DNA of 64,000 bases from Subtercola vilae. Its GTDB lineage: Bacteria; Actinomycetota; Actinomycetes; Actinomycetales; Microbacteriaceae. Each line of letters begins with the position of its first letter. Position 1 is the first letter of the stretch. The stretch lies in assembly GCF_004923255.1 (NCBI RefSeq), contig NZ_QYRT01000009.1:1-64000 (forward strand). The letters are read 5' to 3'. The notes below the pieces were generated by a model, which did no database searches, was not told where the DNA came from, and was given only the letters and a program-made list of their open reading frames with translations. Both the position numbers and the translations under genes were made by a program. This document shows, one piece after another, positions 7,486-37,190 of the stretch.

Positions 7486-8285
7486 GCCAGCTCCTCGCGG
7501 ATCTCGTCGGCCAAGACGCAACTCACGGCGCGTCGCCAGTCGGCGGCGCCATGAGCATCAGTGAACCATTCGTCGAGGCGTTCGACGTCGGCGCGCAGAG
7601 TGTCGGCGTCGGGCAGGGCGTCGTAGCTCAGCTGAACAGGCTTTACGGTGGCGGCGGTGACGGTCAGAACGAAGGCGCCAGAGCGTTCGAGGCGGCCGAG
7701 CAGTACGGCCCCCGATCGTCCGAGCGGGGACAGGGCGATCTTGCGGTAGCCCACCCTCGCCTCGAGCGCTCGAAGCGGCAGGTGAATCGAACGCAGAACC
7801 TCGCCAGGGGTCAGGATGTTCGTGGTGTTTCCGGTGATGAACGAGGTCACGGGCATCCGGCGCTCGCTGCCGTCGGGGCTCCAGATGAGCACTTCACCGT
7901 CGAGCGCAGCCGTGAGGGAGGTCATGGGGCCGGCCGGAAGCGAGGCGCAGAGGTTGCCGCCGACGGTGGCGACGTTCCAGACCTTGAACGAGCCGAACAG
8001 GGCTGTGCAGCACTGGAAGAACGCGGGGTGCGCGAGCCAGCCGGGTTGGGCGGGGAAGCGCGAGAGCTCGGCGATGGTGCAGGTGGCGGCGATGTCGAGA
8101 CCGTCGGGGGTGACGGTGAGGGCAGGCCACTCGAGGGTCATCAGGTCGACGAAGCCCTCGAGGTGGTTCTGGGGCTCGCCGAAGAGCGCGGAACCGCCGG
8201 CGAGGGGTACGACCGTGGTGCAGAGCGCCACCAGGTCGGCGCGGCTACGGGCCAGCCGAACATCGGTGATGGTGTTCAGATCCAT
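7482..8285 (-). CDS. Xanthine dehydrogenase-like FAD-binding subunit
   Basis: 267 residues of the CoxM/PucC/XdhB family, which pass electrons from the FeS clusters to FAD. The two FAD-contact segments are recognisable: VVPLAGGSALF (about 25-35) and WNVATVGGNLCASLPAGP. The CO-dehydrogenase-flavoprotein-type C-terminal part includes the segment SPLGRSGAVL. The ATG at 8285 has AAAGGG upstream; longer in-frame starts only add low-complexity sequence. Its stop overlaps the FeS/Mo subunit start by 4 bases, so the subunits are translationally coupled. A 175-bp gap separates it from moaE upstream, leaving room for its own promoter. Confidence 0.9.
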   Translation of the reverse strand: MDLNTITDVRLARSRADLVALCTTVVPLAGGSALFGEPQNHLEGFVDLMTLEWPALTVTPDGLDIAATCTIAELSRFPAQPGWLAHPAFFQCCTALFGSFKVWNVATVGGNLCASLPAGPMTSLTAALDGEVLIWSPDGSERRMPVTSFITGNTTNILTPGEVLRSIHLPLRALEARVGYRKIALSPLGRSGAVLLGRLERSGAFVLTVTAATVKPVQLSYDALPDADTLRADVERLDEWFTDAHGAADWRRAVSCVLADEIREELA

Positions 8286-8460
8286 GATGCAGGTGCCCTT
8301 TCTGTGGGCCCGACGGCGGCCCAGCCCGCGAGAAAGCGGGATCTGATCAGTGAACACCACAAAAATGTCGGGCATGTAACGGGGAGTGGGCGGTGCGGGC
8401 GGGGTGCGGTTTCGAGAGGGGGTGTCGGATGCCCGTGCCGCGTGCGGGGTGGTGTTCGTG

Positions 8461-18634: not shown

Positions 18635-19510
18635 ATGGCTGAACGCAACTCCTGGTCGCTGTCGGGCGCCCTCCGCGGCATGTTCGCAAAGAAGACGATC
18701 GACGACGAGACGTGGGACGACCTCGAGACCGCACTCATCACCGGAGACTTCGGCATCGACGTCACCGATCAGATCGTCGGCGACCTGCGCACGAAGGTGT
18801 CGCGCTACAACACCACCGACCCGAAAGACCTGCAGCGCATGCTTCGGGAGACTCTCGAGGAGCGGTTCTCGAAGCTCGACCCCACGCTGAAGCTCACCGA
18901 GCGGCCGGCGGTCGTGCTCGTGGTGGGCGTGAACGGCGTGGGCAAGACCACGACCATCGGCAAGTTCGCCAAGTTCTTGGGCAACTACAACCGCACGGTC
19001 GTGGTCGGGGCGGCCGATACGTTCCGGGCCGCCGCCGTCGAGCAGGTTGCGACCTGGGCCGAACGCGCGGGCGCGCACATCGTGCGGCCGCAGCAAGAGG
19101 GCCAAGACCCCGCCTCGGTGGCTTTCCAGACCGTCGAGTACGCCAAGCGCAACAATATCGAGATCGCCATCATCGACACCGCCGGCCGCCTGCAGACCAA
19201 GGGCGGGCTGATGGATGAACTCACCAAGATCAGGCGCGTCATAGAGAAGCAGGCACCCGTCGCCGAGGTGCTGCTCGTACTCGATGCCACGACGGGCCAG
19301 AACGGTCTGCTCCAGGCGGAAGCGTTCATCGAGCATGCCGGGGTCACCGGCCTCGTGCTCACCAAGCTCGACGGTTCGGCGAAGGCCGGGTTCGTTCTGG
19401 CCGTGCAGGAGCGCACGGGCATCCCGATCAAACTGATCGGCCAGGGCGAGGGCATCAACGACCTCACCGGTTTCACGCCGCATGTCTTCGTGCAGAACCT
19501 GATCGGTTAA
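18635..19510 (+). CDS. ftsY: Signal recognition particle receptor FtsY
   Basis: 291 residues, a short FtsY without the acidic A domain of E. coli. The NG GTPase has GVNGVGKTT at 98-106, DTAGRLQTK, TKLDGSAKAG and the end GFTPHVFVQNLIG. It docks ribosome-SRP complexes at the membrane and partners with Ffh encoded just downstream. Its last 53 bases including the stop are repeated 422 bases downstream, at the far side of a small insert that separates ftsY from ffh. The gene itself is intact. Confidence 0.96.
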   Translation: MAERNSWSLSGALRGMFAKKTIDDETWDDLETALITGDFGIDVTDQIVGDLRTKVSRYNTTDPKDLQRMLRETLEERFSKLDPTLKLTERPAVVLVVGVNGVGKTTTIGKFAKFLGNYNRTVVVGAADTFRAAAVEQVATWAERAGAHIVRPQQEGQDPASVAFQTVEYAKRNNIEIAIIDTAGRLQTKGGLMDELTKIRRVIEKQAPVAEVLLVLDATTGQNGLLQAEAFIEHAGVTGLVLTKLDGSAKAGFVLAVQERTGIPIKLIGQGEGINDLTGFTPHVFVQNLIG

Positions 19511-19512
19511 GA
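19458..19512 (+). repeat. ftsY 3'-end repeat, copy 1 (att-like)
   Basis: Fifty-five bases covering the last 17 sense codons and stop of ftsY recur at 19880-19934 with two differences (T/C at 19482, G/A at 19492). Both differences are third-position and synonymous in the ftsY frame. This is what a 3'-end integration site looks like after insertion of an element. Confidence 0.85.
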
Positions 19513-19524
19513 CAGAGCTCTGGG

Positions 19525-19905
19525 CTAGTTCGTTGAGGCGACAATCCACGCGGTAAGGCCCCAACAGAGTAATGCCACGCATCCGCAAACGATGTACCTC
19601 ATCTTTCGTGCGGCGGGGCTGCCACCACGGATTGCGACGATAAGAACTATGGGCAACAACAGAAGGATTCCAGCTAAGGCGTCTTGCCCGCAGTTCGTCG
19701 TTGAACAATCGACACTCGTCGCGAGTAACATCGCGGCTCCTACCGTCATGGACGGCTTGAGATCATCGGTGGAAAGTAGAGCACGTCTCCTATCGTAGCT
19801 GATAAAAAATCGACTATCTGGATTGGTTGGGCTCGTCACGTCGACAGAACCGATCGGCGCGGTCGCCCGTGCGAACAAGACGACCTCACCGGTTTCACGC
19901 CGCAC
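19525..19905 (-). CDS. Small membrane protein in the ftsY-ffh insert, unknown function
   Basis: Up to 126 residues, with two hydrophobic segments near 78-93 (LAGILLLLPIVLIVAI) and 104-123 (YIVCGCVALLCWGLTAW) and a cysteine pair (CSTTNC) before the first. The start is uncertain: the GTG at 19905 lies inside the second ftsY repeat, and an internal ATG at 19749 would give 74 residues. Codon use is less GC-biased than in the neighbours. I recognise no family. It is the only gene-like content of the insert; it could be a real accessory gene or a chance open frame. Confidence 0.5.
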   Translation of the reverse strand: MRRETGEVVLFARATAPIGSVDVTSPTNPDSRFFISYDRRRALLSTDDLKPSMTVGAAMLLATSVDCSTTNCGQDALAGILLLLPIVLIVAIRGGSPAARKMRYIVCGCVALLCWGLTAWIVASTN

Positions 19906-19934
19906 GTCTTCGTACAGAACCTGATCGGTTAAGA
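19880..19934 (+). repeat. ftsY 3'-end repeat, copy 2 (att-like)
   Basis: The distal copy of the duplicated ftsY 3' end. Its final TAAGAT forms a plausible -10 box 9 bases before the ffh ATG, while copy 1 ends TAAGAC. Copy 2 may therefore be the original ftsY end that once adjoined ffh, and copy 1 the version carried in by the element. Confidence 0.85.
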
Positions 19935-19935
19935 T
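19930..19935 (+). promoter_or_regulatory. Possible ffh -10 box within the repeated ftsY end
   Basis: TAAGAT ends 9 bases before the ffh ATG and no ribosome-binding site is seen. A very short leader of 2-3 bases would result. Confidence 0.4.
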
Positions 19936-19944
19936 TGTGTCACC

Positions 19945-21540
19945 ATGGCAACTTTTGGAAACCTCTCTGACCGCTTAGCCGATACCTTTCGAAATCTTCG
20001 CACGAAGGGCAAGCTCAGCCCTGCAGACGTCGACGGTACGGTCCGCGAGATTCGTCGTGCCCTGCTCGACGCCGACGTGGCGCTGGATGTCGTCAAAGAC
20101 TTCACCGGCAAGGTGCGTGAGCGCGCGCTCGGCGACGAGGTCAACAAGGCCTTGAACCCCGCCCAGCAGGTGGTTCAGATCGTCAACGAAGAACTGATCG
20201 CCATTCTCGGTGGCGAGGCCCGGCGCATCAACTTCGCCAAGAAGGCTCCGACGGTCATCATGCTCGCGGGCCTGCAGGGCGCCGGTAAGACGACGCTCGC
20301 CGGCAAGCTGGCGAAGTGGCTCGCGAAAGACAACCACACCCCGCTTCTGGTCGCCGCCGACCTGCAGCGCCCGAACGCCGTGCAGCAGCTGCAGGTGGTG
20401 GGTGGACAGGCCGGCGTCGCGGTGTACGCACCCGAGCCCGGCAACGGCGTCGGCAACCCCGTGAAGGTCGCCAAAGACTCCATCAAGTGGGCCATCGACA
20501 AGCAGTACGACGTGGTCATCGTCGACACCGCCGGCCGTCTCGGCGTGGATGCCGACATGATGAAGCAGGCCGCAGACATTCGTAAGGCCGTCGACCCCGA
20601 CGAGGTGCTCTTCGTCATCGACGCGATGATCGGGCAAGACGCGGTGGCTACGGCCAAGGCGTTCCAGGCCGGTGTCGACTTCACCGGTGTCGTGCTGACG
20701 AAGCTCGATGGCGATGCCCGGGGTGGTGCTGCGCTGTCGGTGGCCTCTGTCACGGGCCGACCCATCATCTTCGCCTCGACCGGTGAGTCACTCGACGACT
20801 TCGAACCGTTCTACCCGGATCGCATGGCGTCGCGCATCCTCGACCTCGGTGACATTCTCACCCTGATCGAGCAGGCGCAGGGCGCGTTCGACGAAGAAGA
20901 GGCGAAGAAGGTCGCGGAGAAGTTCCGCACCGACAGTTTCACGCTCGAAGACTTTCTTGGCCAGATGCAGCAGCTGCGCGGTGCGGGGTCGCTGAAGAAG
21001 ATGATCGGCATGCTCCCGGGCGCCGGCGCGATGCGCGAGCAGCTCGACAACTTCGATGAGCGTGAAATCGTTCGCACCGAGGCCATCATCCAGTCGATGA
21101 CGAAGGCCGAGCGCCAGAATCCGAAGCTGTTGAACGGTTCGCGACGCGTGCGCATCGCCCGCGGTTCGGGCATGACGGTGACCGACGTGAACCAGCTCGT
21201 GCAGCGTTTCGAGCAGGCCGCCAAGATGATGAAGACGGTTGCGCGCGGCGGTGTACCCCAGATTCCGGGCATGGGGCCGATTCCCGGCGCCGGGTTCGCA
21301 GGGCGCGGCAAGGTTCAGCCGAAGAAGAAGGGCTCGAAGTCGGGCAACCCGGCGAAGCGCGCCGTCGAGAACGCGGCGCTGGCGTCGGGGGAGAAGCTTC
21401 CGGGGGCGGCGGGTGCAGGCTCGGGCGGCGGGTCTGGGTTCGGGCTAGGTTCTGGTTCTGGCGCTGGCGCGGATGCTGGCGCTGCCGGCGGCCCGAGCGA
21501 GAAGGAGCTCGAGTCGCTGCAGAAGTTCCTGCGGCGCTGA
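19945..21540 (+). CDS. ffh: Signal recognition particle protein Ffh
   Basis: 531 residues. The N-terminal helical bundle is followed by the GTPase (GLQGAGKTTLAGK, DTAGRLGVDADMM, TKLDGDARGG) and a Met-rich M domain that binds 4.5S RNA and signal peptides (FLGQMQQLRGAGSLKKMIGM ... SRRVRIARGSGM). The last ~60 residues form a Gly/Ala/Ser tail beyond the usual end. It acts with FtsY. No Shine-Dalgarno is visible before the ATG. Its upstream region is the duplicated ftsY end. Confidence 0.97.
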   Translation: MATFGNLSDRLADTFRNLRTKGKLSPADVDGTVREIRRALLDADVALDVVKDFTGKVRERALGDEVNKALNPAQQVVQIVNEELIAILGGEARRINFAKKAPTVIMLAGLQGAGKTTLAGKLAKWLAKDNHTPLLVAADLQRPNAVQQLQVVGGQAGVAVYAPEPGNGVGNPVKVAKDSIKWAIDKQYDVVIVDTAGRLGVDADMMKQAADIRKAVDPDEVLFVIDAMIGQDAVATAKAFQAGVDFTGVVLTKLDGDARGGAALSVASVTGRPIIFASTGESLDDFEPFYPDRMASRILDLGDILTLIEQAQGAFDEEEAKKVAEKFRTDSFTLEDFLGQMQQLRGAGSLKKMIGMLPGAGAMREQLDNFDEREIVRTEAIIQSMTKAERQNPKLLNGSRRVRIARGSGMTVTDVNQLVQRFEQAAKMMKTVARGGVPQIPGMGPIPGAGFAGRGKVQPKKKGSKSGNPAKRAVENAALASGEKLPGAAGAGSGGGSGFGLGSGSGAGADAGAAGGPSEKELESLQKFLRR

Positions 21541-36214: not shown

Positions 36215-36245
36215 CGAAACGGATGCTGAGCGGCATGCTTGACGG

Positions 36246-37190
36246 GTGAACCTCGAACGCGTGATGAGCGACTACTTGTCGCACCTCGAGTTCGAGCGTG
36301 CCTACTCGGCCAACACCATCCGTTCGTACCGGTCTGACCTGGCCAATCTGCGAGCCTTCGCCGAGCAGCGTGCAGCAGCCGAGGCGCGCTCGGAAGCCAA
36401 ACCGCAACCGGAACCCGAGATCACGCTCGAACTGTTGCGTGACTGGCTATGGGCGGCGTCGAACCAGGGGCTCTCGAAAGCGACCTTGGCCAGGCGCTCT
36501 GCAACGGTCAAAAGTTTCTCTGCGTGGCTGTCGCGAACCCATCAGCAGGCGATCGACCCGGCTGCACGCCTGCGTGCGCCCCGACCAGACCGTTCGCTGC
36601 CCCGTGTGCTGAGCCGTGCATCGATGCAGTCGATCTTCGACCGGCTCGAAGATCGTGCGTCAGAGGGCGAAGAACTCGCCCAGCGTGACCTGGTCATCGT
36701 CGAGCTGCTCTATGCGTCGGCGCTGCGCGTCTCCGAACTCGTGGGAATCGATGTCGACGATCTCGATCTCGACCGACGCACGGTACTCGTGACAGGAAAG
36801 GGTTCGAAGCAGCGGGTCGTTCCGTTCGGGGGGCCGGCGGGGGAGGCGCTCGTGCAGTACCTGCACCGCGGTCGCCCGGCCCTTCTCGAGCGATCCGCCG
36901 TTCCGGCTGCGAAGGGGGCGCTGTTGCTGAACCAGCGCGGTGCCCGGCTCGGCACTCGTGCGGTCTACACCCTTGTGTCGGGGTTGCTGCGTGAGCTTCC
37001 GGGGTCTGGCCCGGAAGGCCCGCACGCGTTCCGCCACACGGCAGCGACGCACCTGCTCGACGGCGGAGCAGACTTGCGTGCGGTACAGGAGATGCTCGGC
37101 CACGCGAGCCTCGGCACAACGCAGATCTACACCCACGTGACGACGGAACGCCTGCGGCAGAGCTACCTCGCGGCCCACCCGCGCGCCTGA
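36246..37190 (+). CDS. xerC: Tyrosine recombinase XerC
   Basis: 314 residues. The N-terminal SAM-like core-binding domain has a ~15-residue acidic/basic insertion (about 43-58). Catalytic residues are in order: Arg in ALRVSELVG, Lys in VTGKGSKQR, HxxR in HAFRHTAATHLL, His in GHASLGTTQ and the nucleophile Tyr in QIYTHV. Position after dprA and before rpsB is the normal chromosomal place of XerC, so this is a housekeeping dimer-resolution enzyme. Start GTG at 36246. Confidence 0.95.
   Translation: MNLERVMSDYLSHLEFERAYSANTIRSYRSDLANLRAFAEQRAAAEARSEAKPQPEPEITLELLRDWLWAASNQGLSKATLARRSATVKSFSAWLSRTHQQAIDPAARLRAPRPDRSLPRVLSRASMQSIFDRLEDRASEGEELAQRDLVIVELLYASALRVSELVGIDVDDLDLDRRTVLVTGKGSKQRVVPFGGPAGEALVQYLHRGRPALLERSAVPAAKGALLLNQRGARLGTRAVYTLVSGLLRELPGSGPEGPHAFRHTAATHLLDGGADLRAVQEMLGHASLGTTQIYTHVTTERLRQSYLAAHPRA

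What the first reader, a model, noticed from the sequence alone, without database searches (positions are those of the whole stretch)
19458..19934. Duplicated ftsY 3' end bounding a small foreign-looking insert: a protein-gene attachment site
Seen: 55 bases including the stop of ftsY recur 422 bases downstream with only two differences. The ~367 bp between them are AT-richer and hold one minus-strand frame for a two-helix membrane protein, with no integrase. Known: integrative elements often use 3' gene ends, usually tRNA or tmRNA genes, and restore the gene with their own copy. Inference: ftsY serves as an attachment site here, and this is either a collapsed element or a minimal integrase-less satellite. 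A signal-recognition gene as target would be unusual.
Basis: partly seen in the sequence, partly recalled or inferred. Interest (0 to 1): 0.72.

Follow-up and report, generated by a model that had tools for sequence, protein, structure and literature searches.

The report
Duplicated ftsY end around small insert
In one Subtercola bacterium a short piece of unknown DNA separates two neighbouring protein-targeting genes and is flanked by two copies of the first gene's end; one copy still ends the first gene and the other probably still starts the second, so it is more likely a one-off insertion than a proven landing site for mobile DNA.

Summary
The last 55 bases of ftsY (19458-19512) recur at 19880-19934 with two differences, flanking a 367-bp insert of lower GC (55.6%; sampled genome 64.9%) with an orphan minus-strand frame that has two hydrophobic segments. 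The arrangement is absent from the 11 other Subtercola genomes held. Three of them have ftsY and ffh 12 bp apart, the spacing the right-hand copy has to ffh.
The attachment-site reading is not established. No second copy of this quality was found in 324 other family genomes, mixed-strain assemblies aside. None of this genome's 7 tyrosine integrases has a relative in 149 stretches downstream of ftsY. Shorter ftsY-end duplications do occur in an Agrococcus MAG and Frigoribacterium faeni.
Relatives add this: a TAnnnT box sits 15-16 bp before ffh in 98 of 98 distinct upstreams. In the short-gap state the ftsY stop codon is the start of that box. Here the left copy keeps the stop but loses the box; the right copy keeps the box. 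I favour a one-off duplicative insertion (0.50) over a collapsed integrative element (0.35).

The parts
18635..19510 (+). ftsY, intact, stop codon TAA at 19508-19510
   Evidence: SRP54 GTPase E=1.9e-67, SRP54_N 9.6e-15
19458..19512 (+). left copy of the 55-bp repeat; 3' end of ftsY; the -10-like box is broken here (TAAGAC)
19513..19879 (.). 367-bp insert, 55.6% GC, no convincing relative found in DNA or protein searches
19525..19905 (-). open frame of 126 codons; likelier protein is 68-74 aa from ATG at 19749 or 19731 (a GGAG stands before the ATG at 19731), two hydrophobic segments; orphan
19831..19857 (+). weak, gapped resemblance to the inner part of the repeat (possible third, decayed copy); 3 of 1000 shuffles score as high
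19525..19542 (.). left arm of an imperfect inverted repeat near the insert ends (partner 19862-19879, 13 of 18); 6 of 500 shuffles as good; weak
19880..19934 (+). right copy of the 55-bp repeat; not joined to ftsY
19930..19935 (+). TAAGAT, probable ffh -10 box, 15 bp before the ffh ATG; its first three bases correspond to the ftsY stop codon of the copied junction
19945..21540 (+). ffh (SRP54)

Best explanation
A one-off duplicative insertion at a two-purpose gene junction. Before the event this lineage had ftsY and ffh fused as in three congeners: the ftsY stop codon TAA was the start of the ffh -10 box TAAGAT, 15 bp before the ffh start (inferred from both copies carrying TTAAGA). A staggered break or template switch, probably followed by end joining, then captured a few hundred bases of unknown DNA and left the 55-bp junction on both sides (mechanism inferred, no step of it shown). 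The two jobs are now divided. The left copy ends FtsY but its box reads TAAGAC; the right copy has no ftsY attached but keeps TAAGAT at the normal distance from ffh (shown by sequence; the promoter role is inferred). Loss of either copy should harm an essential gene, which would explain why both persist.
For: TAnnnT lies at -15 or -16 from the ffh ATG in 98 of 98 distinct upstream sequences, and the window has it at -15. Three of 11 other Subtercola genomes (G003, G004, G008) have the fused junction, TAA plus 12 bp plus ATG. Both copies carry TTAAGA, so the copied unit included the fused junction. Copy 1's T is seen in none of 17 compared sequences; copy 2's A only in G002 and G006. So the copies look like host sequence duplicated in this lineage. 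The genome encodes Ku. No second repeat-flanked insert of this quality was found in the family genomes searched. Shorter ftsY-end duplications occur in an Agrococcus MAG (L119) and Frigoribacterium faeni (L088), in stretches without a match to this genome's 7 tyrosine integrases.
Against: A 55-bp direct repeat that stops just after a gene end and leaves the gene intact is the usual mark of integrase attachment. Staggered breaks with 55-base overhangs are not common (recalled). The promoter role rests on position and conservation only; a simple sigma-70 scan found no promoter in 19400-20000. The lineage has no close relative among the genomes held and its place within Subtercola differs between the DNA and protein trees, so the pre-insertion junction of this very lineage was not seen. 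In L119 and L088 the second copy is not next to ffh, so those cases do not need the two-job argument and could instead point to a site that is hit repeatedly. The possible third decayed copy and the terminal inverted repeat, both weak, would fit a recombination site better.
Confidence: 0.5

Rival explanations
1. Remnant of an integrative element. A tyrosine-integrase element inserted into the ftsY 3' end, supplied its own 55-bp copy and restored ftsY, then lost its integrase and most cargo, leaving attL and attR around 367 bp.
For: Repeat ends two bases after the stop codon and ftsY is intact. Insert is low in GC, orphan and found in no other genome searched. Direct repeats of 12-54 bp, and 30 of 73 elements at 3' ends of housekeeping genes, are reported for streptococcal ICEs with tyrosine integrases (PMC4701971, passages). 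The genome holds 7 tyrosine-integrase-family matches. The ftsY end is also duplicated, over shorter stretches, in L119 and L088. Weak third copy and weak terminal inverted repeat.
Against: No integrase in the insert. Only two copies of the repeat in the genome. No comparable second copy in 324 other family genomes with a match, apart from mixed-strain assemblies. None of the 7 integrases of this genome has a tblastn relative (E up to 0.01) in 149 stretches downstream of ftsY. No DNA match in phages, plasmids or viral contigs.
Confidence: 0.35
2. The 367 bp are ordinary intergenic DNA of this lineage, and only the right-hand 55 bp are new: the ffh promoter region was patched with a copy of the ftsY end by template switching at the shared CGGTTAAGA.
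For: The ftsY-ffh gap varies from 12 to about 730 bp within Subtercola and up to 7.9 kb in other genera. The ffh upstream reads CGGTTAAGATTG in six unfused congeners without a second ftsY end, giving microhomology.
Against: It needs the ftsY end to have had TTAAGA by chance; unfused congeners read CTGA at the stop. The insert resembles no other gap sequence (best blastn E 0.5, tblastn E 3.5).
Confidence: 0.09
3. Assembly or contamination artefact.
For: Draft genome in 103 contigs; no reads available.
Against: Exact shared runs are only 25, 8 and 20 nt; the site lies inside a 132-kb contig; contamination is listed as 0.33%.
Confidence: 0.03

Closest known systems
Integrative elements of the tyrosine-integrase type that use 3' ends of housekeeping genes (rplL, rpsI, lysS, rpmG, guaA; PMC4701971, passages seen)
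   Same: Direct repeat of about 50 bp covering the gene end, gene left intact, foreign-looking DNA between the repeats
   Different: Only 367 bp, no integrase, no conjugation or phage gene recognised, no second occurrence found; the word ftsY does not occur in the main text of that paper
Captured DNA at a staggered double-strand break joined by Ku/LigD end joining (recalled mechanism)
   Same: Orphan fragment, flanking duplication of host sequence, single occurrence, Ku present
   Different: A 55-bp flanking duplication is long; LigD was not looked for; no donor was found
Transposon insertions with target-site duplication (recalled)
   Same: Direct repeat of host sequence on both sides
   Different: 55 bp is far longer than usual duplications (recalled); no transposase; only a weak imperfect terminal inverted repeat

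Membership tests
Integrative element at a gene 3' end | direct repeats with the gene end, host gene intact | tested here: met
Integrative element at a gene 3' end | encodes an integrase or recombinase | tested here: not met
Integrative element at a gene 3' end | empty site in close relatives | tested here: inconclusive
   short junction without insert in 3 of 11 congeners, but no conspecific genome and the branching is unresolved
Integrative element at a gene 3' end | related elements occupy the same site elsewhere | tested here: not met
   325 of 398 family genomes (own included) matched; no second copy of this quality except in mixed-strain assemblies. Limits: one search scored at most 2 candidates a genome, and one search did not list the 27-nt copy of G360 that one search found, so short copies are missed. 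L119 and L088 hold shorter duplications without an integrase match
Integrative element at a gene 3' end | excision circle or attP | not testable with these tools
   needs DNA or reads
Transposon with target-site duplication | transposase or terminal inverted repeats | tested here: inconclusive
   no transposase; 13 of 18 imperfect inverted repeat near the ends, 6 of 500 shuffles as good
End-joining capture | end-joining machinery present | tested here: met
   Ku E=4.4e-51; LigD not searched
End-joining capture | insert traceable to a donor | tested here: not met
   no donor in own genome, 11 congeners, plasmids or phages

The most novel reading that the evidence does not exclude
The ftsY 3' end is a genuine attachment site for a very small integrase-less cassette, mobilised in trans, which carries a two-helix membrane protein and has inserted more than once (the third, decayed copy at 19831-19857 being the trace of an earlier round); the ftsY-end duplications in Agrococcus and Frigoribacterium would be further uses of the site.
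Probability: 0.1. Interest if true: 0.6.

Novelty: new variant of a known kind. Interest (0 to 1): 0.32.

Why it matters
It cautions that a repeated gene end around foreign DNA does not by itself prove an attachment site. Where one gene's stop codon is also the next gene's promoter box, an insertion that separates the genes would be expected to persist only if it copies the junction. The fused ftsY-ffh junction in some Subtercola and its split here would be a clean natural case of that rule.

Tried and rejected
Homologues of the minus-strand protein: only the own genome matched among 398 Microbacteriaceae. In 296 genomes drawn from the class, 41 besides the own genome match at E up to 0.1, best 0.005; by eye these look like chance similarity of hydrophobic segments. 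None in viral contigs. Pfam, PHROGs and NCBIfam gave only weak matches (best E 0.036, 0.057 and 0.14). Rfam: no match up to E 1. RNA fold of the insert (minus strand): z -0.51, ordinary. PF07508 serine recombinases in the own genome: none. FtsY C-terminus (40 aa) in phage records: 4 weak matches, E 3e-4 to 0.06, in unannotated Listeria, Enterococcus and faecal records; not pursued. Kinship of the insert to DNA in other ftsY-ffh gaps: none. Second ftsY-end matches in family genomes: G010 and G328 hold two different ftsY genes on separate contigs; the second matches of G116 and G394 lie in stretches without ftsY; the rest of the second matches of the 59 genomes are at E 4.9e-4 or weaker and 42 bp or shorter. 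Corrected on re-check: two of the seven integrase queries were the wrong frame; one search repeated the comparison with the right frames and again found nothing. In one search the repeats had been sorted by eye only; one search tested them against stop codons and found two more that hold one (L082, L112). Papers, listings only: none held all of ftsY, attachment site, integrase, integrative; one held ftsY, attB and integrase, and its title concerns polyphosphate and cell division in E. coli; searches listed nothing that I judged to the point.

Full report
Observation. The window holds ftsY (18635-19510) followed by ffh (19945-21540), both by Pfam. The 55 bases 19458-19512 recur at 19880-19934 with two differences; the 367 bases between have no repeat of that size inside. 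The insert has 55.6% GC; its first 318 bases have 53.8%, its last 49 bases 67.3%, which is host-like. Sampled own-genome GC is 64.9%. The stretch is single-copy in the genome, and the repeat was found there only twice.

Where it occurs. All 12 genomes held for the genus match the flanks, but the insert is full length only in the own genome; the 11 others give short matches, best E 0.002. Gaps between the ftsY stop and the ffh start in the others are: G003, G004, G008 12 bp; G001, G002 39; G009 107; G006 159; G005 648; G007 701; G011 717; G010 about 730 (whose printed gaps are one base larger). In G007 and G011 the gap holds a plus-strand frame for a membrane protein that is unrelated to the insert. 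Trees from smc, ftsY and ffh leave the window's lineage deep and without a stable sister, so no direct forerunner was seen.

What the junction does. A TAnnnT box lies 15 or 16 bases before the ffh start in 98 of 98 distinct upstream sequences (121 before removing identical ones, out of 149 loci with an ftsY end; ffh was not found in the rest). In G003, G004 and G008 the ftsY stop codon TAA is the first half of that box. In the window both copies read TTAAGA. In the left copy the next base makes TAAGAC, so the box is lost and the stop is kept. In the right copy TAAGAT stands 15 bases before ATG, so the box is kept and no ftsY is attached. That this box is the ffh promoter, perhaps giving a nearly leaderless mRNA, is inference; a simple sigma-70 scan found no site.

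Origin of the copies. Compared with 17 ftsY ends from 16 other genomes, copy 1 has one private base (CAT where all 17 have CAC). Copy 2 has GTA where 12 of 17 have GTG; G002 and G006 share its A. At the ftsY end both copies read TTAAGA, which no compared ftsY end does (the fused ones read TTAAAC). So both came from this lineage or a very near one. This fits local duplication; it does not exclude an element adapted to this species.

Test of the attachment idea. Of 398 family genomes (own included), 325 matched the ftsY end (which scored at most 2 candidates each); the other 73 are untested. The 59 others with a second match were searched again with up to 15 candidates. Second matches were weak, except in G010 and G328, which hold two different ftsY genes on separate contigs. 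The search misses short copies: it did not list a 27-nt one in G360, the Frigoribacterium faeni genome of L088. Tblastn of the 7 tyrosine integrases of this genome against 149 stretches downstream of ftsY gave nothing at E 0.01; the 149 are partly redundant and not all reach ffh. Predicted proteins of 8 gaps, judged by eye from their first 100 residues without a family search, show no integrase. DNA or protein searches found no phage, plasmid or viral contig with the sequence (plasmids were asked with the insert only), apart from 4 weak protein matches to unannotated phage records. Direct repeats of 12-54 bp, and 30 of 73 elements in housekeeping-gene 3' ends, are reported for streptococcal ICEs (PMC4701971, passages), so the repeat's size and place alone are compatible with an element.

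Signals for the rival. A gapped resemblance to the repeat lies at 19831-19857 (3 of 1000 shuffles as good), and an imperfect inverted repeat lies near the insert ends (6 of 500). Both were found by looking for something, so they are weak. The protein frame has two hydrophobic segments (0 of 300 shuffles reach its peak), but its length is not unusual (43 of 500).

Background. Over the window, 80 related loci (1.59 Mb together) and 303 kb of the own genome, 25 local direct repeats passed one filter; 4 contain the stop codon of a plausible gene frame. Two are at ftsY, in the window and in L119; the other two, in L082 and L112, look by eye like members of interspersed repeats. The loci were all chosen around ftsY, which is one of many genes in each, so two of four at ftsY is striking but rests on small numbers. 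L088 has a shorter ftsY-end copy below that filter. In L119 the copied stretch is 22 bases of ftsY plus 31 bases beyond it. In L119 and L088 the second copy follows a small palindromic element and is not next to ffh, so it is a different arrangement. It can be read either way: as ftsY ends being duplicated without an integrase, or as a site that is hit repeatedly.

Verdict. The duplication and insertion are real and were found in this lineage only. The safest statement is that a 422-bp event split a two-purpose junction and both copies stayed. A non-integrase origin is slightly favoured; a collapsed element stays open.

Noticed in passing
L088 10880-10990, L119 10890-11210, L071 about 8275-8345: A small palindromic element with nearly constant ends (GGCGCTGGCGTCGC ... 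GAGCTCCAGCGCG) and a variable inner hairpin occurs in three genera; in L088 and L119 it stands directly before a partial second copy of the ftsY 3' end, in L071 it does not.
   Followed up: partly
window 19930-19944 and the ffh upstreams of related loci: A TAnnnT box at -15/-16 from the ffh start in 98 of 98 distinct upstreams suggests a nearly leaderless ffh mRNA in the Microbacteriaceae sampled.
   Followed up: partly
ftsY-ffh gap in L057-L136: The gap ranges from 12 bp to about 7.9 kb with different genes in different genera; many Leifsonia and relatives share a frame of about 167 aa there.
   Followed up: partly
L068 10887-10966 and 11646-11727; L070 10900-10966 and 11379-11445: Rathayibacter carries interspersed palindromic repeats (CGAGATGCCACTTGTG ... 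CACAAGTGGCATCTCG) in this region.
   Followed up: no
window 36243-37187 (+): Tyrosine recombinase frame (PF00589 E=1.3e-38) that looks, from recall, like a chromosomal XerC/XerD; nothing links it to the repeat.
   Followed up: no
G010 contigs C131 and C221; G328 contigs C168 and C302: Two different ftsY genes in one assembly, probably mixed strains.
   Followed up: yes
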